Of a stretch of DNA of 47,100 bases, positions 1 through 27,115 are shown in pieces (within the stretch, counting starts at the first letter, position 1; every line of letters starts with the position of its first letter). The position numbers and the translations under genes were made by a program. The DNA is from an uncultured Verrucomicrobia subdivision 3 bacterium (lineage in GTDB: Bacteria; Verrucomicrobiota; Verrucomicrobiae; Limisphaerales; UBA11358), in NCBI GenBank assembly GCA_903921455.1, contig CAIXPZ010000243.1:1-47100 (forward strand), read 5' to 3'. A model generated the notes under the pieces. It did not search any database and was not told the DNA's origin. It saw only the letters and a program-made list of their open reading frames with translations.

Positions 1-1251
1 GAAAGCACGGCGGCCATCAAGACCAAACCGGCGGAGATCGCCTGTGAAATTGACATGCTGCGCTCGCTCAAAAAAACCGGCATCCGCACGCCCGACGGCG
101 ACAGCGGCTTCTGGGTGATGGAGCAAAAGGCCGGCAACGTAAACTGGCAAGATGTGAATTCGCTCGTCCGCCCCGGGGTCCTGCGGATGTTCACCTACCA
201 ATTGATTTCGCGCGGCGCGAACGCCATCCTGTTTTTCCGCTGGCGCCAGCCGCGTTACGGCACGGAACAATTTCACGGGGCCGTCCTGCCGCACAACCTC
301 GACACCGGCAGCCGCCGGGTTTATGACGAAATCGCGCACATCGGCGAGGAACTCAAGGTGCTGGCGCCCGCGCTCAAGGACACCAAGGTTTCGGCCGAGG
401 TCTGCATTCTTTACTCGCACGACAACGAGTGGCTGCTGTCGCAGCCGAACCAGCCGAACAAGGGCTTCAACCTGCGCGAGCACATCCAACTCATCTACAA
501 TTCGCTCCACGAACGCAACATCCTCGTGGACTTTGCGCGGCCGAACGAGGATCTGTCGAAATACAAAATCGTCTTTGCGCCGTCGCTGCACCTGCTTTCC
601 GGCGGCGAGGCCGACCGGCTGAAACTGTTCGTCCAGAACGGCGGCACGCTCATCAGCACGTTCAACACCGGGCTGGTGGATGAAAACAACATCGTTCCCG
701 ACACCGGCTTCCCGCATGACCTGACGGATCTGTTCGGCCTCGAAGTGCAGGAATTCGACATGCTGCCGGCGACCGAGGACAATCTGCTCACTTTCAAAGG
801 CGCGTTTCAAACGAGCCATATGCACCCGGCGCGGATCTGGTGCGACCTCATCCAGCCCAAGGGCTGCCAGATACTCGCGACCTTCGGCAAGGATTTTTAC
901 GCCGGCAAGCCCGCCATCACGATGAACACCTTCGGCCTGGGCAAGGCGATCTACATCGGCACCCAGAGCCACCAGCATTTTTATCATGACCTCGTCGCGT
1001 GGCTGCGCCAGATGAGCGGCTTATTCCCGCTGTTGAAAGTGCCGGAGAACATCGAAGTTTCGATGCGCGAAAAAGAAGGCGCGCGCGTCTATTTCCTGCT
1101 CAACCACCAGAACTCCCAGGTGCGCATCCAGTTCTATAAGCCGATGCACGACTTCCTCACCGGCCAGAATATTGTCGGCAACTACGACCTTCCGCCGCAC
1201 GGCGTGCTGGTCATTGACGAACATCCCGAGGCAGCCAAGTCCGCGAGTTGA
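1..1251 (+). CDS. GH42-type beta-galactosidase, C-terminal part (5' end outside window)
   Basis: The frame is open from base 1, so this is the 3' part of a longer gene; about 416 residues are visible. The motif FWVMEQ followed by NVNW near residues 38-46 matches the segment of glycoside hydrolase family 42 enzymes that carries the catalytic nucleophile; the Glu codon is at 121-123. Downstream come the end of the barrel, a flavodoxin-like trimerisation domain (about residues 130-320, with the VFAPSLHLLSGGEADRL stretch) and a small C-terminal beta domain. Family members hydrolyse terminal beta-galactosides; the acid/base Glu would lie in the missing N-terminal part. The exact substrate cannot be read from this fragment. 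The gene ends 16 bases before the 3' end of the oppositely oriented tRNA-Val gene. Confidence 0.85.
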   Translation, partial: ESTAAIKTKPAEIACEIDMLRSLKKTGIRTPDGDSGFWVMEQKAGNVNWQDVNSLVRPGVLRMFTYQLISRGANAILFFRWRQPRYGTEQFHGAVLPHNLDTGSRRVYDEIAHIGEELKVLAPALKDTKVSAEVCILYSHDNEWLLSQPNQPNKGFNLREHIQLIYNSLHERNILVDFARPNEDLSKYKIVFAPSLHLLSGGEADRLKLFVQNGGTLISTFNTGLVDENNIVPDTGFPHDLTDLFGLEVQEFDMLPATEDNLLTFKGAFQTSHMHPARIWCDLIQPKGCQILATFGKDFYAGKPAITMNTFGLGKAIYIGTQSHQHFYHDLVAWLRQMSGLFPLLKVPENIEVSMREKEGARVYFLLNHQNSQVRIQFYKPMHDFLTGQNIVGNYDLPPHGVLVIDEHPEAAKSAS

Positions 1252-1267
1252 AAGCAGAATGAAAGAA

Positions 1268-1342
1268 TGGTGGGCACTGAGGGATTCGAACCCCCGACCT
1301 TCTCCGTGTAAAGGAGCAGCGCTACCACTGCGCCAAGCGCCC
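1268..1342 (-). tRNA. tRNA-Val (anticodon TAC)
   Basis: Read on the minus strand, 75 nt fold into a cloverleaf: 7-bp acceptor stem GGGCGCT/AGTGCCC with one G-T pair, D stem GCGC/GCGC, anticodon loop TTTACAC and a T arm with TTCGAAT. The discriminator base is A and the 3' CCA is encoded (plus-strand TGG at 1268-1270). The anticodon TAC reads GUA and related Val codons. The first anticodon-stem pair is G-A, a mild irregularity. It lies 24 bases downstream of the tRNA-Met gene on the same strand, so the two are probably one transcript. Confidence 0.93.
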
Positions 1343-1366
1343 GACCTTGAAATGAAAAAAGAAAAG

Positions 1367-1443
1367 TGGTGCCAGCGAGTGGAATCGAACCACTGACCTC
1401 GGGCTTATGAGTCCCACGCTCTAACCAACTGAGCTACGCTGGC
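1367..1443 (-). tRNA. tRNA-Met (anticodon CAT)
   Basis: A 77-nt minus-strand cloverleaf: acceptor stem GCCAGCG/CGCTGGC, D arm GCTC...GAGC, anticodon loop CTCATAA, T loop TTCGATT, encoded CCA (plus-strand TGG at 1367-1369). The perfect first acceptor pair (G-C) argues against an initiator tRNA. A CAT anticodon can also belong to tRNA-Ile2, whose C is modified to lysidine; the sequence looks more like an elongator Met tRNA, but this was judged by eye. The last anticodon-stem pair is A-G. Confidence 0.9.
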
Positions 1444-1513
1444 AACCAAACGGCCGATCATTTTGCGGACATTTTGCCTTCTGTCAAACCGGGAATTTCG
1501 CCAGGCTTCCCCC

Positions 1514-2065
1514 GTGACCAAGCTTCCGCGCACTTTTTACGACCGCGACACCGTGCTCGTCGCACAAGAGCTGCTCGGAAAATGGCTCGTCCATAAGCAT
1601 CGGGGCGTCGAGCGCATCGGTAAAATTGTCGAGGTCGAGGCCTATCTCGGCGAACACGATCTCGCGGCCCATTCCGCCAAAGGCCTGACCAAACGCACCA
1701 AGACCATGTTCGGCCCGCCCGGATTTGCCTACGTTTATTTGATCTACGGCGTGCATCACTGCATGAATGTCGTGACCGAACCCGCCGGCCATGCGTCCGC
1801 CGTTCTGCTGCGCGCCCTGGAGCCGGTGAAAAGCCTGACGGGACGCACGCAGGGGCCGGGACTGCTCTGTCGCGCGATGCAAATCGACCGTCGCCTGAAC
1901 GCACACGATTTATTGAGCGACACCTTGTTTATCGCCGAGCCGGACGCCGGCGAAACCTTTGCCGTCGTCAAGCGCCCGCGCATCGGCGTGGATTACGCGA
2001 AGCATTGGGCCAAACGCCGGCTGCGGTTTTACATCAAGGGCAACGCCTTCGTCTCGCGGCCTTAA
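1514..2065 (+). CDS. mpg: DNA-3-methyladenine glycosylase (AAG/MPG family)
   Basis: A 183-residue protein of the alkyladenine DNA glycosylase family, which removes alkylated purines in base excision repair. Family motifs: [10 protein letters not shown] near the N-terminus, the catalytic region [14 protein letters not shown] (general-base Glu), [16 protein letters not shown] and [12 protein letters not shown]. The length is normal for the bacterial enzymes (about 180-200). I chose the GTG at 1514 because family members start shortly before LPR; an in-frame TTG at 1463, only 20 bases from the tRNA gene, would add 17 residues with no family resemblance. Its stop codon overlaps that of the convergent clpP gene in a shared TTAA. 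Confidence 0.9.
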
Positions 2066-2682
2066 ACTTTTTCGCCGCCGGGAATCTCCTTGCGCGACTG
2101 CACGACCAGATCCACCAGCCCGTATTTCTTCGCTTCCTCGGCGCTCATGAAATTATCGCGATCGCAATCCTTCTCCACCTGCGCGACCGTCTGGCCCGTG
2201 TGTTTGGAGAGGATTCCATTCAGCGTGTTTTTCAGCTTGAGCATGTGCTTCACGCGGATTTCGACATCGCTGGCCTGACCTTCGGCCCCGCCGAGCACCT
2301 GATGGATCATGATGTTGGAATTGGGCAGCGCGAACCGCTTGCCCTTCGTGCCCGCGCACAGCAGCACCGCGCCCATGCTGGCCGCCTGCCCGATGCAATA
2401 GGTGTTAATGTCGCACGTCATGTATTGCATGGTGTCGTAGATGGCCAGCCCCGCCGAGACGCTGCCGCCGGGCGAATTGATGTAGAAATGAACATCCTTC
2501 TTCGGGTCGGTCATCTGCAGAAACAGCAACTGCGCGACAATGACATTGGCGATCCCATCATCCACCGGCGTGCCGAGAAAAATGATGCGGTCAACCAGCA
2601 GCCGCGAAAAAATGTCAAACTGGCGCTCGCCGCGGGCCGTCTGCTCGATGACGGTGGGATACGGAATAATCGAATTTTTCAT
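2062..2682 (-). CDS. clpP: ATP-dependent Clp protease proteolytic subunit
   Basis: A 206-residue serine peptidase subunit that forms the double-heptamer chamber of the ClpAP/ClpXP proteases in the cytoplasm. The catalytic triad is visible at family spacing: Ser102 in GQAASMGA, His127 in NIMIHQ and Asp176 in [20 protein letters not shown] (oxyanion-hole region) and the handle helix with [11 protein letters not shown] are present. ATG at 2682 is preferred over an in-frame TTG at 2688 because it gives the usual short N-terminus; no Shine-Dalgarno sequence precedes it. No clpX or trigger-factor gene lies next to it here. A decayed copy of its start and upstream region sits at 5574-5676. Confidence 0.96.
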
Positions 2683-2818
2683 GGGCAAATAACTACTTCA
2701 TTTTTGCCGCAAGTAAAGGCGGGAAGTTTTGCGCACAAAGATCAACTCGGCGACATCTGCGCCACCCGCCTTATGAGTGGCAGCCATCCGCCGAAAATGG
2801 AAATCTCCGGTGCGTTCG

Positions 2819-2941
2819 TGAAGTTGACGCGCAATGCGGCGAAAGGTTTTTGCATCGGAAACGAGAGCCCGGTTCATCCGATAGTTGCAACCTGCCGGGC
2901 AAAAAACCGATCCCAAACAGCTAAAGCTGTTTGGGATCGGT
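2819..2941. repeat. Direct repeat R1, 3' flank of A1
   Basis: About 120 bases, including the terminator of the A1 gene, align with 3917-4045, the matching flank of the paralogue A2. Shared blocks include CATCGGAAAC, CCGGTTCATCC and the terminator stem CCGATCCCAAA, with small indels between them. The flank was evidently copied together with the gene or by gene conversion. Confidence 0.8.
2906..2941 (-). terminator. Intrinsic terminator of A1 (T1), perfect 17-bp inverted repeat
   Basis: ACCGATCCCAAACAGCT at 2906-2922 pairs perfectly with 2925-2941, leaving a two-base centre. On the minus strand it starts 20 bases after the A1 stop codon and is followed by TTTTTTG, as expected of a Rho-independent terminator. 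The stem sequence recurs at T2 and, with changes, at T3 and T4. Confidence 0.9.
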
Positions 2942-2960
2942 AAGAAACTACTTGCCAGAA

Positions 2961-3644
2961 TTAAAGTTGATTCAACTTGCCGCTGCCAATGGCGGAGGCG
3001 CTGCCGTAAATCGGCAGGAAATCCGATTTTCCGGTTGTGGAATTCGGGGTGATTTCACACTGGCCGCTCAGGTCGGTAGCCTGGGCATTAACATTAATGG
3101 TGACTGTGGTGTTGCCCTTGTTCGAGCTCTGACTTCCTTTTGCGCTATAGACGCCGCCGACTTCGAACCAGTTGGCGGAAGCTTCCTGGCTCAAGACCTG
3201 ATCAAAACCAAACTCCGTGGACGGACTGTCATAAAACGCGATGCCAACAGTGCCATTGCTGGTTGCGGAACCGCCATTATTACCGGGTTTGCTGGTGGAA
3301 ATAAACTCGCGGTTATCAATCGTCAAAACGGATTCCGCCGTAAGATCGACCCCCAGCGTTTTGGTTTTTGTGTTGTAAACAAAAACATCCCCGTTGGCGA
3401 CGGAGTTTTGAACTCCAACCACCAAAGTAAGATCCTTGGTGCTAGCATAGAGCGCCGACAAAATTTGCTTGTTGGTTACGGTCGCTTTTTTCAGCTTGCC
3501 GTTACTAGCATAGACAACCGTCAATTTGATATTGACGTTGGCGTAAAGACCATTGTTCAACACGATGCCAGCTTGGGCAACAGGCGCGAAACTCATCAGC
3601 CCAGCGGCCAATGCGCAGCCCGTAATAATTTTAGTGAATTTCAT
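2961..3644 (-). CDS. Exported protein of family A, copy A1
   Basis: A 227-residue protein of unknown function. MKFTKIITGCALAAGLMSFA followed by PVAQA|G is a clear signal peptide (positive n-region, hydrophobic core, AQA cleavage site near residue 24), so it is probably released into the periplasm or beyond. The mature part is rich in Asn, Ser, Thr and Val, has no Cys pair or catalytic motif that I recognise, and shares with A2 and A3 the pattern GKLKKATVTNKQIL, GDVFVY, FGFDQ and a C-terminal GSG motif. I chose the ATG at 3644 because it starts the signal peptide; the frame is open 35 codons further upstream. A TTGACA promoter and its own terminator flank it. It could be a structural or extracellular-matrix protein, but nothing proves that. 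Confidence 0.8.
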   Translation of the reverse strand: MKFTKIITGCALAAGLMSFAPVAQAGIVLNNGLYANVNIKLTVVYASNGKLKKATVTNKQILSALYASTKDLTLVVGVQNSVANGDVFVYNTKTKTLGVDLTAESVLTIDNREFISTSKPGNNGGSATSNGTVGIAFYDSPSTEFGFDQVLSQEASANWFEVGGVYSAKGSQSSNKGNTTVTINVNAQATDLSGQCEITPNSTTGKSDFLPIYGSASAIGSGKLNQL

Positions 3645-4007
3645 AGTTTTTTTGATGTTTACCTGTTTGCTTGTGTTTTGTTTTGGCCCGTTTGCCCGAC
3701 GCCAGTCGGAACCCAAACCAGCCATTAGTTTACTTTTATTAAATGTCACTTACTGTGTCAATATCTTATTTTTTAATCCATTGCATTAATCATCGAAGCC
3801 GATCAAGGGGGCACCTTTCATCTCGCGCTTTAACAAACGACGCTCCCGGCCATGCTACGCCGGAGGAACCGTGGGAATAGACCAGTAAAAATAACGCCCC
3901 TCTGCCGGGTAGATTATTGAAGCTGCCGGCGAACGCGGTAAGGGGTGTTTACATCGGAAACAAGCGCCGGTTCATCCATTATTTGCAAACTGTCAGGCAA
4001 AATAAAA
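3645..4007. other. Intergenic region between A2 and A1
   Basis: No coding region is supported in these 363 bases. On the minus strand they hold the C/A-rich leader of A1 (next to its ATG), the A1 promoter at 3733-3761 and, at the A2 side, most of repeat R2 (3917-4045). The stretch 3775-3916 shows no structure that I can name. Confidence 0.7.
3733..3761 (-). promoter_or_regulatory. Putative sigma-70-like promoter of A1
   Basis: On the minus strand TTGACA (3761-3756) is followed after 17 bases by TAAAAG (3738-3733). The -10 is weak, but the same arrangement (TTGACA, 17 bases, A-rich hexamer) precedes A2 and A3. The 5' leader down to the ATG at 3644 is rich in CAAAC-like blocks and poor in G. 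Confidence 0.6.
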
Positions 4008-4045
4008 AACCGATCCCAAACAGCTCGCGCCGCTTGGGATCGGTT
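3917..4045. repeat. Direct repeat R2, 3' flank of A2
   Basis: The second copy of the flank described at 2819-2941, in the same orientation relative to its gene. Similarity runs from the TGAAG block near the left end through the terminator stem. It diverges where R1 continues towards clpP. Confidence 0.8.
4008..4045 (-). terminator. Intrinsic terminator of A2 (T2)
   Basis: AACCGATCCCAA (4008-4019) pairs with TTGGGATCGGTT (4034-4045) around a 14-base GC-rich loop. On the minus strand it begins 21 bases after the A2 stop codon and is followed by TTTTTATTTTG. Confidence 0.88.
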
Positions 4046-4066
4046 GATTTGAAATCCAACTCGCAA

Positions 4067-4753
4067 TCAAGGAACCAAAGTAACCACCGGAGCCGTCACC
4101 GTGCCGCTGCCGCTGCCAGAAAGGCTGGCGGTTACGGGCAAGGTGTTGGCATCATCCAAATCAACGTCAAAACCCACACCGGCAAGCGCGTCAGCCTTTA
4201 GATTGGTCGTCTGGCTGGACTTGCCCTTTTTGTTCGGGGCCGTAAATGTCTCCGTATAGGCATAAACCCCACTAACTTCCATCCAGAAGGCCGAGGCATT
4301 CTGGCTCGCGATCTGATCAAATCCCTCACTGAATACCGGGTTGCTGTAAGCACTTACCGTGAGGGTGCCGGCGGAGGTGTATTTTTCCTTGTTTTTGTTA
4401 CCGGTGGAACTGCTAATAAGGTCGCTGCCGTCCACGAACACATAACCGCCGGTGGTAAGATCCTCGACCACACTGTTTTTGTTGATGACATACACATCGC
4501 CGGTGCCGGCGCTACCAATGGAGATGGCCAGTTTGTCACCATTGGTAAAACCAAACGACTTCAAGAACGTCTTGGAATTGACGCTGGCCTGCTTGAGCTT
4601 GCCGGTCTTGGAATCAAGGTAGGTAACGACCGCCTTGACATTCAACGGGGTAAACAGGGTATTTTCAATGACCACGCCAGCTTGAGTTTGCGTTGCGACA
4701 GTCGCCAGCCCGGCGGCGAGCGCGCAACTGAGAATGATTTTGTTCAGTTTCAT
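4067..4753 (-). CDS. Exported protein of family A, copy A2
   Basis: A 228-residue paralogue of A1 and A3. MKLNKIILSCALAAGLATVA with TQTQA|G is a signal peptide with a cleavage site near residue 25. The mature chain shows the family pattern: TGKLKQASVNSKTFL, GDVYVINK, GGYVFVDGSDLISS, EGFDQIASQNASAFW, GVYAY and SGSGSGTV near the end. The region EGFDQIxSQxASAxWxEVxGVY is the best conserved between A1 and A2. No enzyme motif is seen. The ATG at 4753 starts the signal peptide; no Shine-Dalgarno sequence precedes it, but the leader is CAA-rich. Its own promoter (4804-4832) and terminator (T2) make it a single-gene unit. Confidence 0.8.
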   Translation of the reverse strand: MKLNKIILSCALAAGLATVATQTQAGVVIENTLFTPLNVKAVVTYLDSKTGKLKQASVNSKTFLKSFGFTNGDKLAISIGSAGTGDVYVINKNSVVEDLTTGGYVFVDGSDLISSSTGNKNKEKYTSAGTLTVSAYSNPVFSEGFDQIASQNASAFWMEVSGVYAYTETFTAPNKKGKSSQTTNLKADALAGVGFDVDLDDANTLPVTASLSGSGSGTVTAPVVTLVP

Positions 4754-4803
4754 TGGATTATATTTTTGTTTGTTGTTTGTTTTGCTTGAGACTTAATGTT
4801 CCT

Positions 4804-4832
4804 GATTTTCAACGGGTTTGCTCTTTTGTCAA
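4804..4832 (-). promoter_or_regulatory. Putative promoter of A2
   Basis: On the minus strand TTGACA (4832-4827), 17 bases, then AAAATC (4809-4804). The -35 is perfect; the -10 is poor, and the case rests on the same layout at A1 and A3. It lies in the 154-base gap between B1 and A2. Confidence 0.5.
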
Positions 4833-4907
4833 CTGGCATTTGGAAAATGAATCCAGGGCCATGTTTTGATAAACAACCTGAACCATCCCGGCCCGCCCGT
4901 GACAACA

Positions 4908-5468
4908 TTATTGGCCCTGCTGCTTGGCCGCGCGAATTTCGGACATGGAGGGCAGCGACAGGAATTCGATGGCGTCCTGCAACGCTTTCTTCTCGTCGGG
5001 GTCGGTCGTGTTGGCCGCCGCTTCCTTCAACACCGGAACCGCATCGTGACCGCCGAACTGAATGGCCGCCTCCACCGCCGCCGACCGGACTTGTTTATCG
5101 GGATTCGCCAGCTCGGTCAGGATGGCTTTGAGCGATTGCGGGTCGTCATTGGCCTGCAATTCCTGAAGCCTGTCTATGGTAGCCTGCACAGCGGCGGCGT
5201 GCACCGCATTGGTATCCGCCACTTCCGCCACGACAGGAGCTGGATTGGTGGCGACGGGCGGCACGGCGACCGGAACCGTCAGGACTTTGGCAGGAGCGGG
5301 CGGAACCGGGCGGGTGGCGACCACCGGATTGCTGACCGGTGCCGTTGGCGTAGGGGTGGCGACCGGCGCCTCGGTCAACACCGGAGCCGGCTGACGTTTT
5401 AACAAAAAGATACCAGCAATCACCACCAAGCCAGCCAGCAGAACGACAATGACAATTTTAGGTCTCAT
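4908..5468 (-). CDS. Membrane-anchored HEAT-like protein of family B, copy B1
   Basis: A 186-residue protein of unknown function. MRPK is followed by a hydrophobic segment (about residues 5-23) without an evident cleavage site, so it is probably a membrane anchor with the rest in the periplasm. Residues 26-90 form a linker rich in Pro, Ala, Val and Thr. The C-terminal half (about 92-180) is helical and resembles HEAT/armadillo repeats: QATIDRLQELQANDDPQSLK, ILTELANPDKQVRSAAVEA, HDAVPVLKEAA. Such repeats usually bind other proteins. It is a clear paralogue of B2. Its ATG (5468) lies 13 bases beyond the U-tract of the hairpin T3, which leaves no room for a normal promoter between them. Confidence 0.8.
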   Translation of the reverse strand: MRPKIVIVVLLAGLVVIAGIFLLKRQPAPVLTEAPVATPTPTAPVSNPVVATRPVPPAPAKVLTVPVAVPPVATNPAPVVAEVADTNAVHAAAVQATIDRLQELQANDDPQSLKAILTELANPDKQVRSAAVEAAIQFGGHDAVPVLKEAAANTTDPDEKKALQDAIEFLSLPSMSEIRAAKQQGQ

Positions 5469-5493
5469 AGTTTCCAGACATCGTTAAATAAAA

Positions 5494-5532
5494 AACCGGT
5501 TCAAAACAGCTTAAAGCCATTTTGAACCGGTT
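5494..5532 (-). terminator. Hairpin with U-tract between B2 and B1 (T3)
   Basis: AACCGGTTCAAAA (5494-5506) pairs perfectly with TTTTGAACCGGTT (5520-5532); on the minus strand TTTTTATTTA follows. It has the form of a Rho-independent terminator of B2, yet it sits just upstream of the B1 start codon, so it may act as a partial terminator or attenuator within an A3-B2-B1 transcript. The stem resembles T1, T2 and T4. Confidence 0.82.
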
Positions 5533-5573
5533 GTGAGCGCTGTCAAAACTTATCAGTCAATCGACGTTAGGGC

Positions 5574-5676
5574 CGGCGACGGGGAGATACGGAATAATAG
5601 ATTTTTCATGGGTGGAACCGCTATATTTTTCCGCAAGCAACGGCGGGAAGGGCGCACATAACCCACTCGCCAACCC
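5574..5676 (-). pseudogene. Relic of the clpP 5' end and upstream region
   Basis: This stretch aligns, in the same orientation, with 2649-2755: the first codons of clpP, its start codon and about 70 bases upstream. Shared blocks include GATACGGAATAAT, ATTTTTCATGGG, CCGCAAG and CGGCGGGAAG. Read on the minus strand the relic starts with ATGAAAAAT, as clpP does, but a one-base deletion shortly after it breaks the frame. It is therefore not a gene, but it records a duplication that included the clpP start. It lies between the B2 stop codon and hairpin T3. Confidence 0.8.
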
Positions 5677-5701
5677 AATTGCTTCGGTAGCCAGACTATA
5701 G

Positions 5702-6295
5702 CTATGGCTGGCCGGTTCTTTGCTGCTGAGCGGCCAGCCTTTTCTGGGCCATCACTTCGGTGTAGGTGGGCAGCTTAAGGAATTCCACCGCGTCCAGCAG
5801 TTCCTGCTTCTCTTGAGGATTCGACGTCTGAGCAGCTAATTCCGCCAAAACGGGGATAGCTGCACGGTCTCGAAACTGGGTGGTGGCTTCGATGGCGGCA
5901 TGGCGGATGTCCCGGTTGGTATTGATCAACTCACCAAGTATTTCCCGCAGTGATTCAGCATCATAATTGGCCTGCAATTCTTCCAGACGATTAATCTTGG
6001 CTTGAACAGCAGCAGCTTCGGCGTTAACGGCCACGGCAGCAACCGGAGCCGTATTGGTGGGCTCACTCGGGGCAACCTCAATCTTAACGGGCGCGGGGGT
6101 GGCAACCGGTGCGACAACCGAAGGAGTAACCGGCTGGGGCAAAACCGTTGGACTGACCTTGGCGGGCGGAGCAACTGGGGCACTGGCAGCAGCAACCTCC
6201 GCTGGCGGACGACTGCCAGCAGGTTTTAGAAAATAAATTGCGGCCACCCCGGCCAAGCCAAGCAACAACACGGTGATGACAACTTTAGGTCTCAT
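5702..6295 (-). CDS. Membrane-anchored HEAT-like protein of family B, copy B2
   Basis: A 197-residue paralogue of B1: MRPK, one hydrophobic segment (about 5-23), a long Pro/Ala/Val linker to about residue 95, then a helical HEAT-like region (QAKINRLEELQANYDAESLR, ILGELINTNRDIRHAAIEA, AAIPVLAELAAQ) and a Gln-rich tail. The two B proteins differ most in the linker and the tail. It lies downstream of A3, separated by hairpin T4; only about 26 bases lie between the U-tract and its ATG, so it probably depends on read-through from A3. The function is unknown; anchoring plus a protein-binding repeat suggests an envelope scaffold or partner of the A proteins. Confidence 0.8.
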   Translation of the reverse strand: MRPKVVITVLLLGLAGVAAIYFLKPAGSRPPAEVAAASAPVAPPAKVSPTVLPQPVTPSVVAPVATPAPVKIEVAPSEPTNTAPVAAVAVNAEAAAVQAKINRLEELQANYDAESLREILGELINTNRDIRHAAIEATTQFRDRAAIPVLAELAAQTSNPQEKQELLDAVEFLKLPTYTEVMAQKRLAAQQQRTGQP

Positions 6296-6335
6296 TTTAG
6301 AAATTTTGTGGTGAGCGGTTGAAAAATAAAAGAAA

Positions 6336-6376
6336 AAACCGATCCAAAATAGCCCGGTGCTATCTTGGATCGGTTT
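6336..6376 (-). terminator. Hairpin with U-tract between A3 and B2 (T4)
   Basis: AAACCGATCCAA (6336-6347) pairs with TTGGATCGGTTT (6365-6376); an inner TAGC/GCTA helix lies beyond a 2x2 internal loop. On the minus strand TTTTTTCTTTTATTTTT surrounds its 3' side. It starts 24 bases after the A3 stop codon. Confidence 0.85.
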
Positions 6377-6400
6377 GAAACGTTAAGTCAGATTAATCTA

Positions 6401-7030
6401 TTAGTCTACAATCTTGCCACTGCCCGAAGCGGAAACGCTGCCGCTAGCGGGGAGGTAGTCGTAGTAGCTCTCACCATCGTAGCTAAACGTCTCGCCAGCC
6501 AGGCCATTGGCAGTCAACGAATAGTTGTAGTTGTAGTCATAATTTTTATTGTTATACTGGTAGTTATAGCTGTCAGAATACACACCGTAAAGGTTGAGCG
6601 CATCATAGCCGTAGTCAGTATAGTTGTAGAAATAAAAGTCGGAATAGCCTTTGTAGGTGTATTTTTGGGTATTCTTCGTTTCGTTATAGGTGGAAACGTA
6701 GTCATTCAGTGTGACATCCACATATCCACCTTCCGTCAGATCGTAATCAACAAACCAATCCTTGCCATCCTTGTAGATCACGTAAACATCCTGCCCCGGC
6801 CCCATGGCCAATTTAGCACCTTTGAAATCTTCACCGGAAGCGGTCAAGATGTCCTTGTTGCTAAAGCTCATCTTTTTATATTTGCCGTTATCCACGTAGG
6901 TAACAGTCGCCTTCGCGTTGAAGGCAGAGTAAAGTGAGTTACCAATCACAGTGCCGGCCTGGGACTGAGCTGCGAAAGCCATCAGCCCGGCGGCCAATGC
7001 GCAACCCGTAATGATTTTATTGAGTTTCAT
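6401..7030 (-). CDS. Exported protein of family A, copy A3, Tyr/Asn-rich
   Basis: A 209-residue paralogue of A1 and A2. MKLNKIITGCALAAGLMAFA with AQSQA|G is a signal peptide. Family features: NGKYKKMSFSNKDIL, GQDVYVIYKDG, GGYVDVT, a GVY motif and SGSGKIVD at the end. Unlike its relatives, the region from about residue 120 to 190 is dominated by Tyr, Asn and Asp, with runs such as NYQYNNKNYDYNYNYS. Such composition suggests a disordered or aggregating, matrix-like segment, but that is inference. The ATG at 7030 is preceded at 7 bases by AAGGA, the clearest Shine-Dalgarno sequence of the array, and by the best promoter. It is first in the presumed A3-B2-B1 transcript. Confidence 0.8.
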   Translation of the reverse strand: MKLNKIITGCALAAGLMAFAAQSQAGTVIGNSLYSAFNAKATVTYVDNGKYKKMSFSNKDILTASGEDFKGAKLAMGPGQDVYVIYKDGKDWFVDYDLTEGGYVDVTLNDYVSTYNETKNTQKYTYKGYSDFYFYNYTDYGYDALNLYGVYSDSYNYQYNNKNYDYNYNYSLTANGLAGETFSYDGESYYDYLPASGSVSASGSGKIVD

Positions 7031-7113
7031 AGTTTTCCTTGTTTGTTGTTTTTCTTGTTTTTTTCCCGTTGGTTTTCGTATCCATTTCAGCTTAAACACT
7101 GAACGTGAAACGA

Positions 7114-7142
7114 TTTTTATGCCGCATGCCATTTTTTGTCAA
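7114..7142 (-). promoter_or_regulatory. Putative sigma-70-like promoter of A3
   Basis: On the minus strand TTGACA (7142-7137), a 17-base spacer, then TAAAAA (7119-7114). It is the best of the three family-A promoters and precedes an A/C-rich leader of about 75 bases. Confidence 0.65.
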
Positions 7143-7309
7143 ATGAAAATTAATAATAATTCATAAATCTATTCTACTTCTGGTTTACCCGTTAACCCCA
7201 TGCTTGCAACCACCTTCCGCCGGATGCTAGCTTGGTCCCCGGCAACCGGATTCACCACCAGACAATGACCGGCCGGAGTTCCGGCTCATCCATACCTGAA
7301 ACTAATGAT

Positions 7310-8449
7310 ATGAAAAAAAACGCCACCGCCAGTCTCCAGGATCGTTTCGTCATCATCATGGCCGGCGGCCGCGGCGAGCGTTTCTGGCCGCTGAGCCGGG
7401 AGAAGATGCCCAAGCAATTGCTCACGCTGTTCGGCAAGCGCTCTTTTCTCCAGCAGGCCGTGGACAATGTCCTGCCGCTCGTGCCGGTGAAAAACATTTT
7501 CATCATCACCAACACCGCCCAAGTGGCCGAGGTGCGGAAGCAGTTGCCGAAATTGCCGAAAGACAACGTCGTCGCCGAACCCATGGGCCGCGACACCTGC
7601 GCCGCGGTCACCCTTGGCGCGGCCCTGGTCGGCGCGCGCTCGACCACCGGGGTAATGGCCGTGCTGCCGGCGGACCACGTCATCCCCGACGCGAAAAAGT
7701 TTCAGCAGATTCTCAGCGACGCCTTTGATGTCGCCGCGCAGGGTCAGGCCATCGTGACCATCGGCATCAAGCCGACCGAGCCGGCCACGGGCTACGGCTA
7801 CATCCACACCGGCGCGGAACTCCCGACGCCGCCCGGCGCCAAGAAGACCAAGACGATTTTCTACAAGGCCGAGCGCTTCGTGGAAAAACCCGATTTCGAG
7901 ACCGCGCTGGAATACGTCAACAGCGGCCAGTATCGCTGGAACGCCGGGATGTTCGTCTGGAGTTTCATCACCGTCACCAACGGCCTGCAGGCGCATCAGC
8001 CGGAAATGTTCGCCGCCTGCCAGCGCTGGTTCAAGGTCGCGGCCAATCCCGCCAAGCTCGCCCGGGTGCTGGCCAAGGAATATCCCGACATCAAGAAAGT
8101 CTCCATCGATTACGCACTGCTGGAGAAGGCGCAGAACGTCATCGTGGCCGACGGCGCGTTTGAATGGGACGATCTCGGCGCCTGGCCCGCGCTGGCGCGG
8201 CACGTCAAGCAGGATGCCGAGGGCAATGCCGCCGTGGCGGACTTCCTGCACGTGGACGCCGCGCGGAACATCATTTACGACGCCCGCTCCAAGGACCGCC
8301 GCACGCCCATCTGCGTGGTTGGCCTGCGCGACTCGATTCTGGTGCAGACGGACGACGCCGTGCTGCTCGCCCACAAATCCCAGGCGCAGAAAATCAAGGA
8401 GCTGGTCAAACTGCTCGCCGCGGATCCGCGCTTGAAGAAGCTCGTGTAA
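7310..8449 (+). CDS. manC: Mannose-1-phosphate guanylyltransferase
   Basis: A 379-residue nucleotidyltransferase that makes GDP-mannose from mannose 1-phosphate and GTP, a precursor for cell-surface polysaccharides. Seen: the signature GGRGERFWPLSREKMPKQ (residues about 15-32), EPMGRDTCAAV, VLPADHVI, GYGYI, FVEKPD and YRWNAGMFVW, all typical of the type II mannose-1-phosphate guanylyltransferases. The C-terminal phosphomannose isomerase domain of bifunctional enzymes is absent, so this is the single-function form. ATG at 7310 is chosen because the family fold starts about 12 residues later; upstream codons of the open frame have no resemblance to the family. It may feed the glycan locus further right, but it is 11 kb away from it. 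Confidence 0.92.
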   Translation: MKKNATASLQDRFVIIMAGGRGERFWPLSREKMPKQLLTLFGKRSFLQQAVDNVLPLVPVKNIFIITNTAQVAEVRKQLPKLPKDNVVAEPMGRDTCAAVTLGAALVGARSTTGVMAVLPADHVIPDAKKFQQILSDAFDVAAQGQAIVTIGIKPTEPATGYGYIHTGAELPTPPGAKKTKTIFYKAERFVEKPDFETALEYVNSGQYRWNAGMFVWSFITVTNGLQAHQPEMFAACQRWFKVAANPAKLARVLAKEYPDIKKVSIDYALLEKAQNVIVADGAFEWDDLGAWPALARHVKQDAEGNAAVADFLHVDAARNIIYDARSKDRRTPICVVGLRDSILVQTDDAVLLAHKSQAQKIKELVKLLAADPRLKKLV

Positions 8450-8461
8450 GCTGGTGTGAGC

Positions 8462-8803
8462 ATGGATGACCGGCGGAAGAAACTAATAAAAGCCGCGCTT
8501 GTTTTATCGGCTGTCCTTTGTGCATTTGTCTTTGTCATTATCCCTAACTTCGTCCGCACTGGCGGGGTGGACCAAGCCGCTTGGTGTAGAATCAATTTAC
8601 GCCAACTGGATGCAGCAGTTGAACAATGGGCTTTTGAAAACAAATTAACCAACGGAACCCTCATTCAAACGAACGCAATTATCCGCTACCTAGCTCACGG
8701 CGAAATTCCCAAATGCCCAATAGGAGGCGCATACATTTTGACCAAAGTTGGCGCTGCACCAATTTGCTCCAAGCCGATGAGCGAACACCGGTTGACTCAC
8801 TGA
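8462..8803 (+). CDS. Small pseudopilin-like membrane protein
   Basis: A 113-residue protein. A basic N-terminus (MDDRRKKLIK) and one hydrophobic segment (about 11-29) are followed by a domain with CRINLRQLDAAVEQWAFEN, a short variable part, IPKCPIGGAYIL and a Cys near PICS. This pattern (NLRQID-like helix, CPxGGxY, C-terminal Cys) is that of small type II secretion pseudopilin-like proteins abundant in Verrucomicrobia. The usual prepilin cleavage motif (Gly followed by FTLIE) is missing, so it may be anchored without processing. It is AT-richer than its neighbours. It starts 12 bases after manC and may be co-transcribed; a functional link is not evident. Confidence 0.65.
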   Translation: MDDRRKKLIKAALVLSAVLCAFVFVIIPNFVRTGGVDQAAWCRINLRQLDAAVEQWAFENKLTNGTLIQTNAIIRYLAHGEIPKCPIGGAYILTKVGAAPICSKPMSEHRLTH

Positions 8804-8827
8804 CCGATTGTTTAGATTGTTTATGTT

Positions 8828-9403
8828 ATGAATTCCGTGGTGATCTACACTGATGGCGGCTGCGAGGGCAATCCCGGCCCCGGCGGCTGGGGCGCGGTGG
8901 TGCGCCACGGCGAATCCGTGCGCGAACTCGCCGGCGGCGAACCCGCCACCACGAACAATCGCATGGAACTCCGGGCGGCCATCGAGGCGCTGGCCTCCCT
9001 CACCGAGCGCAGCGAGGTCTGTCTCTACACCGATTCGCAGTATGTGCGGAACGGCATCACCCAATGGATCCGGGGCTGGAAGCGCAAGGGCTGGGTGACG
9101 GCCGCCAAGGCGCCAGTCAAGAATGTGGACCTGTGGCAGCGCCTCGACCAGCTGGCCGGGCAGCATCAGGTCAACTGGAAATGGGTCAAGGGCCACGCCG
9201 GTCATGCGGACAACGAACGCTGCGACGGTTTGGCCGGCCGCGAAATCGCCCAGCTCAAGCAACACCATTCCCAAGCCGACCGGCAGGCGGCGCTGCACGC
9301 GTTTCAGCATCCCGAGGCCGGCCGGGTTCCGGCCGCGCCGGTTCCTGTCCCGCCCGCCGCGCCCGCCGAAACCCGCACGCTCCAGCAGGCCAGCTGGTTT
9401 TAG
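8828..9403 (+). CDS. rnhA: Ribonuclease HI with proline-rich C-terminal tail
   Basis: A 191-residue enzyme that cuts the RNA strand of RNA-DNA hybrids. The four catalytic carboxylates can be placed: Asp9 in [14 protein letters not shown], Glu47 in NNRMEL, Asp69 in YTDSQY and the Asp in HADNERCD; the loop His lies in VKGHAGH. The region [17 protein letters not shown] is the basic handle of the E. coli type enzyme. The catalytic domain ends near residue 145; the remaining 45 residues are a tail rich in Ala and Pro that most bacterial RNases HI lack. ATG at 8828 places the first Asp at the usual distance. Confidence 0.95.
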
Positions 9404-9568
9404 GGCGAACCCGCCCCGCCGGCGGCGCTCCATTTTGCCCGCCGCAAGGCTTGACCTTTGGCCGCAAATCTCCATTATACGCAACCCGGCGTTTCCGCCG
9501 CTTTCCCGTTCGCGCCCGTTGTCGCGTCTGGTATATTGAGCGACGTGAGCGCACCGGTATTTTACGAT

Positions 9569-11404
<1,836 letters not shown>

Positions 11405-11419
11405 CCCGCCCTCTTTCAC

Positions 11420-11458
11420 CGCCCGGCCGGATGCGAATCCGCCGGGCGTTTTGCTTTT
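11420..11458 (+). terminator. Intrinsic terminator of typA
   Basis: CGCCCGGC (11420-11427) pairs with GCCGGGCG (11441-11448); GGAT/ATCC extends the stem past a bulged C, with a GCGA loop. TTTTGCTTTT follows. It begins 15 bases after the typA stop codon. Confidence 0.88.
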
Positions 11459-11480
11459 CCGGCAGGCCTGGCGCCCGGCC

Positions 11481-11497
11481 AACGGCCGGAGGCCGTT
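11481..11497. repeat. Short palindrome at the end of the phosphatase gene
   Basis: AACGGCC (11481-11487), GGA, GGCCGTT (11491-11497): a 7-bp stem that touches the stop codon of the convergent phosphatase gene. No U-tract follows, so it is not a standard terminator; it may limit convergent transcription. Confidence 0.5.
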
Positions 11498-13131
11498 CAG
11501 GATTTGACGGGCGGCATGCCGAGGTAATCCATGCCCACGAGGCAGACGTCGTCGTCAAAGGCGCCGTTGACGGCAAAGCCGCGGATGACGGTGAGGAGTT
11601 CGTCGAACAAAATCCCGGGCGGATGGGCGAGCAGGTTTTTCACGTCCAGCGTCAGCCGTTCCTGCGAATATAATTCCTCATCCTGCCCCTGCACCTCGTA
11701 AAGCCCGTCGGTGAACAGCATCAGGAAATCGCCGGGCGCCAGCGCCGTTTCGCTGGTGGTGTAGGGCGGATCTTCAAACAGGCCGAGCGCGGGCTGGCCG
11801 CGGCCGGAGGCATTGGCCAGGGCGTCCACCTGATTGAGGGAGCGCCGGATGACGAGCGGCTTGGGATGACCGGCATTGGCGTAGCGGAGCTGGCCGGTCC
11901 GGCAGTCGGCCACGGCGTAAAACGCGGTGGTGAGCATGGGCGAGCCGGTGTTCTTGAGGATGCAGCAGAGATCGTAGTTGAGCTTGCGCAGGAATTCGCC
12001 GGGATCGCGCGCCAGCGGCTTCAATTCCTCCGCCAGCGCCCGGATCATGGCCGTGACCAGCGCGGCGCGGACGCCGTGGCCGGTGACATCGCAGATCAAC
12101 ACCCCGACCTCGGTCCCAGAGATGGCGGAGACGCTGAAGAAATCGCCGCTGACGGATTCCGCCGGCTCGTAGCGGTGGACGAACTGGAAGGCGCTGACCT
12201 CGGGCGCGACGCCGGCGGGAAAAACGGGGTAGGACTGCGGCAGCATGGTGAGCTGGATTTCGCGCGCGGTGCGGAGGTTGTCCTCCATGACGGCGTTCTT
12301 GGTGCGCAATTCCTCGCGGCTGCGGGAAAGTTCCCCGGTGGCGCGGCGGATCTGTTCCTCGGCGCGCTTGCGGTCGGTGATGTCCTCGACGGTGCCCTCG
12401 TAGTAAAGCAGTTTGCCCTGGGCATCGCGGACGGCGCGGCAGTTCTCGGCGATCCAGATGATGGTGCCGTCCTTGCGGTAGATGCGGGATTCGAAGCCGC
12501 TCAAGGTGTCGTGCTCCTGCATGAGGTGGACGAATTCCTCGCGGCGGCCGTGCTCGACGTAGAGGCTGCCGGCGATGTCCTTGATGCTGGCCATGAGTTC
12601 CACGGGGGATTCGTAGCCGTAAATCTTGGCGAGGGCGATGTTCGCGAGGAGATAATGGCCGTTGACCGTGGTGCGGAAGATGCCTTCCACCAGGTGGTCG
12701 AAGAGGCCGTAATAATTCTCCTTTTCCTCAATCAGCGCCAGCCGCTCCTGATGGCGGGCGATAGAGCAATAGATGGCGTGCCGCAGCGAGGCCGCGGAGA
12801 GCTGGTCGCGCCCGAGGAAATCCTGCGCGCCGCTGAACACGGCCTCGGCCAGAAACTCCTCGTTCTCGCTCGGCCCGATGACGAGGACGGGCTGGCGCGG
12901 CGCCTGGGTGGTGAGGGAGGTGATCTGAAACAGGGCGGCGGTGTTGGCCGCGGCGATCTCGAACAGGATGACGTGGAAATTATTGGTGGCCACCATCGCC
13001 AGCCCGGCGTCGGCGGCCGGCTCCACGGTGACCTCCACTTCCCTGGCGGCGCACAGCAGCAATTCGCCGATGTGGCGTGCCATCGCCGCATCACCGCTGA
13101 TCAACAGGATTTTCAGAGGACTGTTTTCCAT
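11497..13131 (-). CDS. PAS-containing SpoIIE-type (PPM) protein phosphatase with receiver-like N-terminus
   Basis: A 544-residue cytoplasmic signalling protein. Residues 5-125 have the fold pattern of a response-regulator receiver, but the phospho-acceptor position carries Glu58 (VILFEI) instead of Asp. Residues about 137-255 are a PAS domain with its PAC end (GTIIWIAENCRAVRDAQGK, YYEGTVEDITDRKRAEEQ). A coiled coil (about 255-300) leads to a SpoIIE-type Ser/Thr phosphatase domain: TAREIQLTMLPQ, the metal-binding SGDFF, ICDVTGHGV, YANAGHPKPLV and LFTDGLYE. Such RsbU-like proteins usually act on anti-sigma-factor antagonists. No partner gene is adjacent. ATG at 13131 starts the receiver-like domain; the frame is open upstream only because it runs antisense to the next gene. 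Confidence 0.9.
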   Translation of the reverse strand: MENSPLKILLISGDAAMARHIGELLLCAAREVEVTVEPAADAGLAMVATNNFHVILFEIAAANTAALFQITSLTTQAPRQPVLVIGPSENEEFLAEAVFSGAQDFLGRDQLSAASLRHAIYCSIARHQERLALIEEKENYYGLFDHLVEGIFRTTVNGHYLLANIALAKIYGYESPVELMASIKDIAGSLYVEHGRREEFVHLMQEHDTLSGFESRIYRKDGTIIWIAENCRAVRDAQGKLLYYEGTVEDITDRKRAEEQIRRATGELSRSREELRTKNAVMEDNLRTAREIQLTMLPQSYPVFPAGVAPEVSAFQFVHRYEPAESVSGDFFSVSAISGTEVGVLICDVTGHGVRAALVTAMIRALAEELKPLARDPGEFLRKLNYDLCCILKNTGSPMLTTAFYAVADCRTGQLRYANAGHPKPLVIRRSLNQVDALANASGRGQPALGLFEDPPYTTSETALAPGDFLMLFTDGLYEVQGQDEELYSQERLTLDVKNLLAHPPGILFDELLTVIRGFAVNGAFDDDVCLVGMDYLGMPPVKS

Positions 13132-19987: not shown

Positions 19988-20445
19988 GGGACCAGTTGCC
20001 GGCGTGGCGAAAGCAGATTCGCGCCCGCGGCAAGAAGCTCGTCGTCACCAACGGCTGCTTTGACCTCCTGCACCTCGGCCATGTCACCTATCTGGAGAAC
20101 GCCCGCAATTTCGGCGACGCCCTGCTCCTCGGCGTCAATAGCGATGCCGCCGTGCGCGGCTTGAAAGGCCCGGGCCGGCCCGTGAATTCCGAGACCGACC
20201 GCGCCCTGGTGCTGGCCGCGCTGCAAAGCGTGGACGGCGTCTGCATCTTCACCGATACGACGGCCACGAAATTCCTCGCCGCCGCGCAGCCGGACATTTA
20301 CGTCAAGGGCGGCGACTACACGCTGGAAACGTTGAATCAAGACGAACGGCGCGCCGTCGAATCGGCGGGCGGAACGATTATGCTGGTGCCGTTCGTCCCC
20401 GGCAAATCCACGACGGGCCTGCTGGAAAAGATTACGCGGCTGTGA
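19960..20445 (+). CDS. rfaE2: D-glycero-beta-D-manno-heptose 1-phosphate adenylyltransferase
   Basis: A 161-residue cytidylyltransferase-fold enzyme, equal to the C-terminal domain of HldE, that makes ADP-heptose. The nucleotide-binding motif is VVTNGCFDLLHLGHVTYLE with the HxGH signature at residues 40-43; GVNSDAAVRGLKGPGRPVN and YVKGGDYTLETL are family motifs. The kinase domain of HldE is absent and no separate rfaE1 is in the window. It overlaps the following glycosyltransferase by four bases (GTGA), so the two are translationally coupled. ADP-heptose would be the donor for that GT9 enzyme. Confidence 0.92.
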   Translation: MNFRDKLIAWDQLPAWRKQIRARGKKLVVTNGCFDLLHLGHVTYLENARNFGDALLLGVNSDAAVRGLKGPGRPVNSETDRALVLAALQSVDGVCIFTDTTATKFLAAAQPDIYVKGGDYTLETLNQDERRAVESAGGTIMLVPFVPGKSTTGLLEKITRL

Positions 20446-21500
20446 AGATTCTCGTCATCTCGCTTGCGGGCATCGGCGACACGCTGATCGCCACGCCGCT
20501 GCTCCACGAACTGCGCGCCAACTTTCCCGCCGCAACGATTGACGCGCTGGTGATGTGGCCCGGCGCGAAAGATTTGCTGGAACACAATCCACACGTCAAC
20601 CGCGTGTTCCAGAAAAATCTCATCAAGGGCGGCACGCTGGAGGCGGTGCGCTTTCTAACAGCGCTGCGGCGCGAGGGCTACCAACTCTCCATCAACACGC
20701 ATCCGCAAAGCCGCATCCACTACCGGCTGGCAGCGTGGCTGGCGGGCGCAAAAACCCGCGTGAGCCACGAATACGAATGTTTCAACTGGCTGGACCGCCG
20801 GCTCGTCACCGGCACGCTGCCGCAGGATTACTCGATTCACGCGGCGGAAAACAACCTGGCGGTGCTCCCGCTGATCGGCGCGCAGAAAAAACTGCCAACG
20901 CATGAGCTGGAGCTGTTCCTGACGCCGGCGGAGGAAAAATGGGCGGACGATTTTCTGGCGGGCGCCGGTCTGGCCGGCAAAAAATGGCTGGGCATCCACG
21001 TCGGTTCCGGCGGCACCAAGAATCTGGCCCTGCGCCGCTGGCCGCTGGAAAATTTCATTGAGCTGGCGCAGCAGCTAGGCGCGTGGCAAAAAGACTTTCC
21101 CATTTTCTTTTTTGGCGGCCCGGAAGAAGCCGCCAGCCATGACAAAATCCGCGCGAAGCTGCCTGCGGCGATATTCCCGCCGACAAAAAACCTGCGGCAG
21201 GCGGCGGCATTACTGCGCCGGGCGCGGGCTTTCCTGAGCGTGGACACGTCGCTGATGCATGTGGCCGCCGCCATGAAGGTTCCCGTTCAAATTGTCATTG
21301 AGACCCCGACGTGGAACAAACCCATCGAGCCGTTTGGCAACACGTTCACGCTGATCAAAAACCCGGCGGTGGCCGGACGAAACCTGGAATTTTATCGCTA
21401 CGACGGCGGCGACATCAAAGGCACGCGCGAAGAATTGATCGCATGCATGCAGTCGGTAACAGTCGCGGATGTTTTCGCGACGGTCACGAAGTTGATCTGA
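20442..21500 (+). CDS. Glycosyltransferase family 9 (ADP-heptose:LPS heptosyltransferase-like)
   Basis: A 352-residue GT-B glycosyltransferase. It begins MKILVISLAGIGDTLIATPLL (from GTG), the usual start of WaaC/WaaF-type heptosyltransferases, with Asp13 of the GxGD motif in place. The C-terminal half has GIHVGSGG, KNLALRRWP, FFFGGPEE and SVDTSLMHVAAAMKVP, which bind the ADP-heptose donor. It probably adds heptose to a lipid-linked glycan on the cytoplasmic side of the inner membrane. The GTG start overlaps the rfaE2 stop. Its own TGA stop (21498-21500) is supplied by the left end of a palindromic element. Confidence 0.88.
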   Translation: MKILVISLAGIGDTLIATPLLHELRANFPAATIDALVMWPGAKDLLEHNPHVNRVFQKNLIKGGTLEAVRFLTALRREGYQLSINTHPQSRIHYRLAAWLAGAKTRVSHEYECFNWLDRRLVTGTLPQDYSIHAAENNLAVLPLIGAQKKLPTHELELFLTPAEEKWADDFLAGAGLAGKKWLGIHVGSGGTKNLALRRWPLENFIELAQQLGAWQKDFPIFFFGGPEEAASHDKIRAKLPAAIFPPTKNLRQAAALLRRARAFLSVDTSLMHVAAAMKVPVQIVIETPTWNKPIEPFGNTFTLIKNPAVAGRNLEFYRYDGGDIKGTREELIACMQSVTVADVFATVTKLI

Positions 21501-21656
21501 GGTAGCACCCGCGTCTCGCGGGTGAAATTCGGCGTCCCGCCGAATTTTGGAGAGTCGCGTGATTTGCAAATTCGCAAGCGAACGCGGCAAGAAACACATC
21601 TCGCCGGTTTTCGGCGGGACGCCGAAAACAACAGGCCAAAGGCCTGTGCCACCTCA
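21498..21656. repeat. Palindromic element with inverted ends that carry two stop codons
   Basis: The ends TGAGGTAGCAC (21498-21508) and GTGCCACCTCA (21646-21656) are inverted repeats with one mismatch. Inside are four near-perfect hairpins: CACCCGCG/CGCGGGTG (21506-21524), AAATTCGGCG/CGCCGAATTT (21525-21547), GTTTTCGGCG/CGCCGAAAAC (21607-21629) and CAGGCC/GGCCTG (21632-21646). The first TGA ends the GT9 gene and the last TCA is the TGA of the opposite gene. There is no coding capacity. It resembles REP/MITE-like non-autonomous elements; it could also act as a bidirectional terminator. Confidence 0.75.
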
Positions 21657-22919: not shown

Positions 22920-22950
22920 TCGGCATTCCATGGTGGCCGTCCGCAAGGAC

Positions 22951-23547
22951 TCACTTAGTCGATTCCCACTTGGTCTGGGCGACCTTGAGCTTGGGATGCG
23001 ACACGAGCAAGTGCCAGACGATGCCTTGAAACGCTTCACTATGCGGCGTGACGTGCGTCGGATTCACCGTCGGCACGATGACGCATGCGGTCGCCTGCTG
23101 CGCCGTGTAACCGCCATCACGACCGACAATGCCGACGACCGACGCACCAACTGATTTGGCGACTTGAATCGCGCTGACGAGATTCGGGCTGACATTCTTT
23201 TCGAGATTGCCGCCACCAACAGAAAAAATCAGCAAGCCGTCCTGCGCATTGATGCGACTGCCTTTGAGCCACTCGGAGAAAACCGTCGCCCAGCCTTCGT
23301 CGTTGGTGCGCGCGGTGAGTTCGGAAACATTGTCCGTCGGCGCGTAGGCTTCGAAACCGCAGATCTTGCGGAAGTCATTCACCGCATGGCCGGCGTTACC
23401 GGCGCTGCCACCAACACCGAGGATAAATAACCGTCCGCCGCGCGCGCGGATGGCGGCCAGTTCGTCCGCCGCCTTTTCAATAGCCGCTTCGTTGAGTTGC
23501 GCCGTGACCTGCTGGACTTCGGCAAGAAACTGTTTGGTAAAGCTCAT
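22951..23547 (-). CDS. gmhA: SIS-domain sedoheptulose 7-phosphate isomerase-like protein
   Basis: A 198-residue SIS-domain protein of the GmhA type, which converts sedoheptulose 7-phosphate to D-glycero-D-manno-heptose 7-phosphate. Seen: LFILGVGGSAGNAGHAVNDF (phosphate-binding Ser cluster and helix), NVSELTARTNDEGWATVFSEW and IFSVGGGN, then GIVGRDGG. GmhA proper has GNGGSAADAQH; this form is that of SIS proteins found in heptose clusters with HddA and HddC. The assignment rests on family resemblance plus position between the phosphatase and the nucleotidyltransferase genes. ATG 23547 has the typical short leader. Confidence 0.82.
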   Translation of the reverse strand: MSFTKQFLAEVQQVTAQLNEAAIEKAADELAAIRARGGRLFILGVGGSAGNAGHAVNDFRKICGFEAYAPTDNVSELTARTNDEGWATVFSEWLKGSRINAQDGLLIFSVGGGNLEKNVSPNLVSAIQVAKSVGASVVGIVGRDGGYTAQQATACVIVPTVNPTHVTPHSEAFQGIVWHLLVSHPKLKVAQTKWESTK

Positions 23548-23592
23548 GAGTATTTGAAATTACGAATTTTGAAAGACGAAGGAAAGCAGAGT

Positions 23593-25280: not shown

Positions 25281-25282
25281 AG

Positions 25283-26254: not shown

Positions 26255-26256
26255 GT

Positions 26257-27114: not shown

Positions 27115-27115
27115 G

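What the first reader, a model, noticed from the sequence alone, without database searches (positions are those of the whole stretch)
2683..7142. Array of two interleaved paralogous families of exported and anchored proteins (A3-B2-B1-A2-A1)
Five adjacent minus-strand genes belong to only two families: three signal-peptide proteins (A) and two membrane-anchored, Pro/Ala-linker HEAT-like proteins (B). I recognise no described system. Expansion of both in one locus, with shared regulation (next findings), suggests that they work together at the cell surface, for example an extracellular matrix protein and its anchored handling factor. This functional idea is inference; the paralogy and layout are seen.
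Basis: partly seen in the sequence, partly recalled or inferred. Interest (0 to 1): 0.8.

Follow-up and report, generated by a model that had tools for sequence, protein, structure and literature searches.

The report
Variable secreted protein, anchored HEAT partner
Some Verrucomicrobia carry a pair of neighbouring genes, one for a fast-changing secreted protein and one for a stable membrane-anchored partner, and this stretch holds an expanded array of them; I found no report of the pair, which may be a two-part cell-surface system.

Summary
Five minus-strand genes form two families: A1-A3 (secreted, 36-39% identical by BLASTP) and B1-B2 (anchored, Pro/Ala linker, HEAT-like; 45%). The pair is not local. 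In related Verrucomicrobiota, B is often preceded on the same strand by an A gene, up to about 180 nt away: 21 of 36 B genes at order level (24 with HMMER filters off) and 2 of 9 from the rest of the phylum (3 with filters off). A is hypervariable (median mature identity 19%), B's HEAT domain conserved (48%). A hairpin plus T-run with covarying stem follows A in the window and in several relatives, and promoter-like sites precede many A genes but few B genes, so A is probably made in excess. No family library names A. AlphaFold gives a confident all-beta model, and distant A domains are fused to Ig-like/ice-binding-like or laminin-G-like domains. B2 lacks its A; beside it lies a decayed copy of the clpP start, so the array grew by duplication and loss. 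Best reading: A is an abundant exported surface module, B its low-copy docking partner. The pairing is well supported; the function is inference. Rivals: outer-membrane barrel with tether, effector with immunity protein, sensor.

The parts
6401..7030 (-). A1: secreted all-beta protein, 209 aa; mature part 16% Tyr
5702..6295 (-). B1: membrane anchor, Pro/Ala linker, HEAT-like domain, 197 aa
4908..5468 (-). B2: paralogue of B1, 186 aa; no A gene directly upstream
4067..4753 (-). A2: paralogue of A1, 228 aa; AlphaFold target
2961..3644 (-). A3: paralogue of A1, 227 aa
6336..6376 (-). hairpin plus T-run between A1 and B1
5492..5534 (-). hairpin plus T-run just upstream of B2 (left behind by a lost A, inferred)
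4008..4045 (-). hairpin plus T-run after A2
2906..2941 (-). hairpin plus T-run after A3, before clpP
5578..5650 (-). decayed copy of the clpP upstream region and first codons (61/77 nt)
7114..7142 (-). A1 promoter-like site TTGACA-17-TAAAAA
4805..4832 (-). A2 promoter-like site TTGACA-16-GAAAAT
3733..3761 (-). A3 promoter-like site TTGACA-17-TAAAAG
2062..2688 (-). clpP-like gene that ends the array (named by eye from its translation)
7310..8449 (+). mannose-1-phosphate guanylyltransferase-like gene (manC; named by eye from its translation), divergent neighbour kept in several relatives

Best explanation
A and B are a two-gene system of Verrucomicrobiota, here expanded to A1-B1-(A lost)-B2-A2-A3. 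Shown by sequence: the ordered A-B neighbourhood, A fast and B slowly evolving, a conserved hairpin after A in the window and its closer relatives, promoter-like sites before many A genes, and duplication with loss at this locus. Inferred: A is exported by Sec, folds as a soluble beta-barrel-like module and is made in excess as a surface or matrix component. B stays anchored in the inner membrane at lower copy and reaches across the periplasm on its Pro/Ala linker. Its HEAT domain binds a shared feature of A proteins and docks, stabilises or hands them on. Because B is conserved, one B could serve several divergent A proteins, which would let A multiply and diversify.
For: Adjacency: 21 of 36 order-level B genes have an A directly upstream on the same strand, 24 with filters off; 2 of 9 at phylum level, 3 with filters off. 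Eight of the 23 found with default filters lie in loci not used to build the A profile. A-first search (profile partly built from B neighbours): 23 of 42 A matches lie within 1.5 kb of a B, 18 of the best 19. Identity over 16 pairs: A median 0.19, B HEAT 0.48. Hairpin, 13 copies: 8 of 17 pairs change on both sides (3 of 500 shuffles reach that), 98% of cells paired, 0 of 500 shuffles reach the covariation score. In the 47 kb the four hairpins score 16-17.5 and the next 12.5; with the model they score 49 bits or more and nothing else passes 14 apart from the same four sites read backwards. TTGACA lies within 220 nt of 11 of 20 A genes against 1.4 expected, and within 110 nt of 1 of 17 B genes against 0.4. 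A domains are fused to Big_5 plus Ice_binding in two proteins and to Laminin_G_3 in one. The A model has pLDDT 87.4.
Against: No binding, location or expression data. Of the 42 A matches, 19 are not within 1.5 kb of a strong B; one of these belongs to an array with B and three lie within 300 nt of the contig end where a B would follow. Five order-level B genes follow a long ORF that the A profile does not recognise (leader visible in two; three run off the stretch), and two follow none. Outside the order the A-B gap is 17, 8 and -3 nt, so the hairpin is not general; within the order some pairs have another hairpin or none found. 9 of 20 A genes lack TTGACA. The A-B identity correlation (r 0.55) may be shared ancestry only.
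Confidence: 0.5

Rival explanations
1. A is a small outer-membrane beta-barrel, and B is an inner-membrane anchored arm that holds it, so the pair tethers the two membranes.
Confidence: 0.15
2. A is a secreted effector or toxin and B its anchored immunity protein.
For: HEAT-repeat immunity proteins are listed for polymorphic toxins, in Verrucomicrobia too (PMC3482391, passages). Order A then B, tandem arrays, fast A.
Against: B is the conserved partner, while immunity proteins normally vary with their toxin (general knowledge). A2 and A3 have no B of their own. No supported toxin domain in 46 A proteins scanned against Pfam.
Confidence: 0.08
3. B is a sensor or regulator that reads the amount of exported A, or a periplasmic quality-control factor, rather than a docking partner.
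For: Conserved pairing and low predicted B dose.
Against: By the predicted topology B has only a few residues inside the cell, so no signalling domain of its own. Other genes near the pairs were not searched systematically for regulators or proteases.
Confidence: 0.15
4. Neighbourhood is historical only: B and A do not interact, and the array is neutral duplication.
For: The array bears scars of duplication; the place next to manC is shared by several relatives.
Against: The order A-B is kept at sites with and without manC nearby and in genomes outside the order.
Confidence: 0.07

Closest known systems
HEAT_2 (PF13646) / alphaRep-type HEAT repeats
   Same: B's C-terminal domain: HEAT_2 in B2 above cut-off; AlphaFold model matches alphaRep and QueG HEAT domains
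   Different: Short domain of about 100 aa on a membrane anchor with a Pro/Ala linker, usually read with a secreted neighbour; no Foldseek match at E <= 0.001
Polymorphic toxin Imm-HEAT immunity proteins
   Same: HEAT protein encoded with an exported protein; listed for Verrucomicrobia (passages)
   Different: Here the HEAT protein is conserved and anchored; the exported partner has no recognised toxin domain
Small outer-membrane barrels (NspA, OmpX, OmpW)
   Same: All-beta model with long antiparallel strands, top VIA-align rows
   Different: No C-terminal aromatic, weak hydrophobic faces, identity 4-9% in these rows
Intercistronic hairpins that lower the next gene's dose (Rhodobacter puf operon; recalled, one search gave only a listing)
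   Same: Hairpin between an upstream gene with its own promoter-like site and a downstream gene without one
   Different: Has a T-run like an intrinsic terminator; its sequence is alike across several genomes; dose effect not measured

Membership tests
HEAT repeat family (B) | HEAT_2 profile match above the curated cut-off | tested here: met
   B2 33.9 bits against 27.7; B1 only 22.7, below it
HEAT repeat family (B) | Paired antiparallel helices in the fold | tested here: met
   Six helices 85-194, pLDDT about 98; HEAT-type entries on top of Foldseek though all E > 0.001
Small outer-membrane beta-barrel (A) | C-terminal aromatic beta-signal | tested here: not met
   0 of 17 A proteins end in F, W or Y
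Small outer-membrane beta-barrel (A) | Up-and-down barrel fold | tested here: inconclusive
Polymorphic toxin / Imm-HEAT | Recognisable toxin domain in the exported partner | tested here: inconclusive
   46 A proteins against Pfam: six families, one member each, best E 0.01; unknown toxins cannot be excluded
Polymorphic toxin / Imm-HEAT | Immunity protein neutralises the partner | not testable with these tools
   needs expression assays
Pilin | Known pilin profile or prepilin-type leader | tested here: not met
   no Pfam or NCBIfam pilin match for A1-A3; leader read by eye as Sec-type with A-x-A site
Intrinsic terminator (hairpins) | Stable stem followed by a T-run | tested here: met
   dG -30.5 and -29.0 computed for the A2 and A3 hairpins; long stem and T-run at all four
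Intrinsic terminator (hairpins) | Terminates transcription in the cell | not testable with these tools
   needs RNA 3'-end data
Rfam RNA families (hairpins) | Match to a known family | tested here: not met
   window 1-12000 at E <= 1: two tRNAs and one sub-threshold match over a tRNA, none at the hairpins

The most novel reading that the evidence does not exclude
A and B are an undescribed surface-display system spread through Verrucomicrobiota: a hypervariable exported barrel module made in bulk, fixed to the envelope by one conserved HEAT adaptor, with (in the window's relatives) a dedicated conserved RNA hairpin setting the A to B ratio.
Probability: 0.3. Interest if true: 0.8.

Novelty: new variant of a known kind. 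Interest (0 to 1): 0.55.

Why it matters
If true, it gives a handle on how a large, little-cultured group of bacteria builds and varies its surface, and adds a HEAT-based partner to the known ways of fixing exported proteins. It also turns a set of unnamed hypothetical proteins into a testable pair, and offers a natural expression-ratio element (the hairpin). If it is only a duplicated pair of unknown proteins, the linkage is still useful for annotation.

Tried and rejected
Pfam, NCBIfam, PADLOC and PHROGs gave no credible family for A1-A3 (best a ribosomal S24e match of A3, E 0.26), nor Pfam for 46 A proteins. Weak matches of B were set aside: TIGR02270 (25.6 bits, cut-off 206.8), DUF2749 at B2's anchor, PADLOC HEAT-ARM_XIII at E 1e-4 (generic HEAT) and a PHROG 'Zot-like toxin' at E 2.5e-4 over B1 residues 2-85, that is anchor and linker. 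PDB sequence search with the A profile: nothing credible (best a ribosomal protein, E 0.005). Foldseek PsbO matches to A (E 1.7e-4, TM 0.22) were not trusted. Tandem repeats in 2000-8000: none.

Hairpin as an exclusive marker of A: partly rejected. In 8 genomes whose hairpins helped build the model, the strong hits are only at A genes, with one borderline extra (G001, E 0.005). In 41 further genomes, with stricter filters, 7 have hits. The strongest, in G204, is a held-out A-B gap; hits in G062 and G263 lie between unrelated genes; four other genomes (G081, G065, G063, G206) have weak hits on contigs other than their strong B, not examined. The 7 are all among the 23 genomes with an A or B; 0 of 18 genomes without B have one. 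Only the best 150 candidates per genome were scored.

Link to clpP: not seen elsewhere; no clpP match in the 26 loci searched (20 regions and 6 contig loci, overlapping in part), though these stretches are short. manC is the neighbour in several loci, read as old position, not function.

Paper searches listed nothing that by title and abstract start concerns this pair; only PMC3482391 was opened (passages). Subscription papers and preprints are not in that library.

Full report
What is there. Between a manC-like gene (7310-8449, +) and a clpP-like gene (2688-2062, -) lie five minus-strand genes in the order A1-B1-B2-A2-A3. A1-A3 are mutually 36-39% identical and B1-B2 45%. The window's own genome is not held. 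ManC and BipA of the window are 81-91% and 84-97% identical to those of the related loci that hold them; the named records among these are MAGs titled Verrucomicrobia subdivision 3 (L001-L003) and Verrucomicrobiia (L005), so the source is a relative of these (inference).

The pair is conserved. Homologue searches found 14 A and 39 B relatives besides the queries, and a broader A profile 39 proteins in all. A scan of genome contigs for B gave six loci in five genomes, all Verrucomicrobia MAGs. Among 320 genomes of the order, the B profile matched 74 at E <= 0.001 (30 at E <= 1e-14), the first A profile 5 and the broad A profile 25. An A profile built in rounds found 22 A genes (three of them the window's) among 1802 ORFs of the window and 20 loci, which had been fetched around B or A matches.

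A clean tally covers 36 of the 40 B matches at E <= 1e-14; two were not fetched, one (G204:C315, with an A 133 nt upstream by coordinates) was not fetched either, and one partial B (L042) was too short and follows another gene. Of the 36, 21 have an A directly upstream on the same strand, 2 are second B genes of A-B-B runs, 1 has a divergent A (an A-Ig-ice-binding fusion), 1 is at a contig end and 11 have none by default filters. Of those 11, filters off add an A upstream in three (L053; L035 and L038) and a divergent A in one (L051); five have an unrecognised long ORF upstream, with a leader visible in two and three running off the stretch; two have none. A phylum-wide draw gave B in 10 of 337 genomes at E <= 1e-10, one of them G001. 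Of nine B genes examined there, the best of each other genome out of 15 matches, two have an A upstream, three with filters off; three more follow an unrecognised ORF with a leader-like start, three do not.

The rounds used B-neighbour genes for training, so the fair tests are the 8 loci outside training (L033, L034, L036, L037, L043, L093, L079, L081) and the first A profile, which knew nothing of neighbourhood: of its 11 matches in the 20 loci, 8 are directly upstream of a B, 2 further up in the same array and 1 has no B.

From the A side: of 42 matches of the broad profile (partly trained on B neighbours), 23 lie within 1.5 kb of a strong B, 22 of them on the same strand with B downstream, and 18 of the best 19; 20 of 25 A genomes also have a strong B. 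So solo A genes exist, mostly weaker matches. Three solo or divergent A domains sit in longer proteins, two with Big_5 and Ice_binding domains and one with Laminin_G_3, architectures typical of surface proteins (general knowledge).

Expression layout. Each A in the window is followed by a long hairpin and T-run, and a fourth lies just upstream of B2. They score 16-17.5 against 12.5 for the next in 47 kb, and the covariance model finds no other site above 14 bits there. The same element lies after A in several relatives; over 13 copies 8 of 17 pairs change on both sides and 98% of cells pair. It is not Rfam-known and not universal: some pairs have another hairpin or none found, and outside the order A and B nearly touch. 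TTGACA lies upstream of 11 of the 20 A genes examined (1.4 expected) and 1 of 17 B genes (0.4 expected, shorter stretch; that one is B2). From this I infer A well above B in amount.

History of this array. The B1-B2 spacer holds a decayed copy of the clpP upstream region and first codons (61/77 nt, E 7e-13; 58.1 bits against at most 25.6 in 100 shuffles), then the hairpin that normally follows an A. The simplest account is tandem duplication of a unit that reached into clpP, followed by loss of one A. In G003 the manC side holds B, then after a gap A-A-A-B, so copy number varies at this locus.

Rates. Over 16 pairs A mature identity has median 0.19 and B HEAT 0.48; the two matrices correlate (r 0.55, p <= 0.0005), which shared ancestry alone could give. 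A fast exported partner with a slow anchored one is unlike a toxin with its immunity protein and fits one adaptor serving many A forms (inference).

Verdict. The conserved A-B pair is well supported; its role as surface module plus docking partner is my best guess at 0.5. I found nothing on it in the listings of the paper searches made.

Noticed in passing
window 5578-5650 (-): Decayed copy of the clpP 5' end inside the array, evidence of segmental duplication.
   Followed up: yes
window 6401-7030 (-): Mature A1 is 16% tyrosine; Tyr is not among the six commonest residues of A2 or A3.
   Followed up: no
window 1271-1342 and 1370-1443 (-): Two tRNA genes next to a 3-methyladenine glycosylase-like gene (named by eye).
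   Followed up: no
L052 8136-10472, L088 1387-3399, L089 1380-2690: A domains fused to Ig-like plus ice-binding-like domains, and to a laminin-G-like domain.
   Followed up: partly
L060 7212-8475, L093 2955-4244: A-B-B runs with two tandem B genes of different N-termini.
   Followed up: no
homologue hits P0068, P0074, P0077, P0085: Four A-family proteins whose longest contig has the same length (13,900), probably one array of at least four A genes.
   Followed up: no
window about 20000-37500: Long run of sugar-nucleotide and glycosyltransferase-like genes, read from translations only.
   Followed up: no
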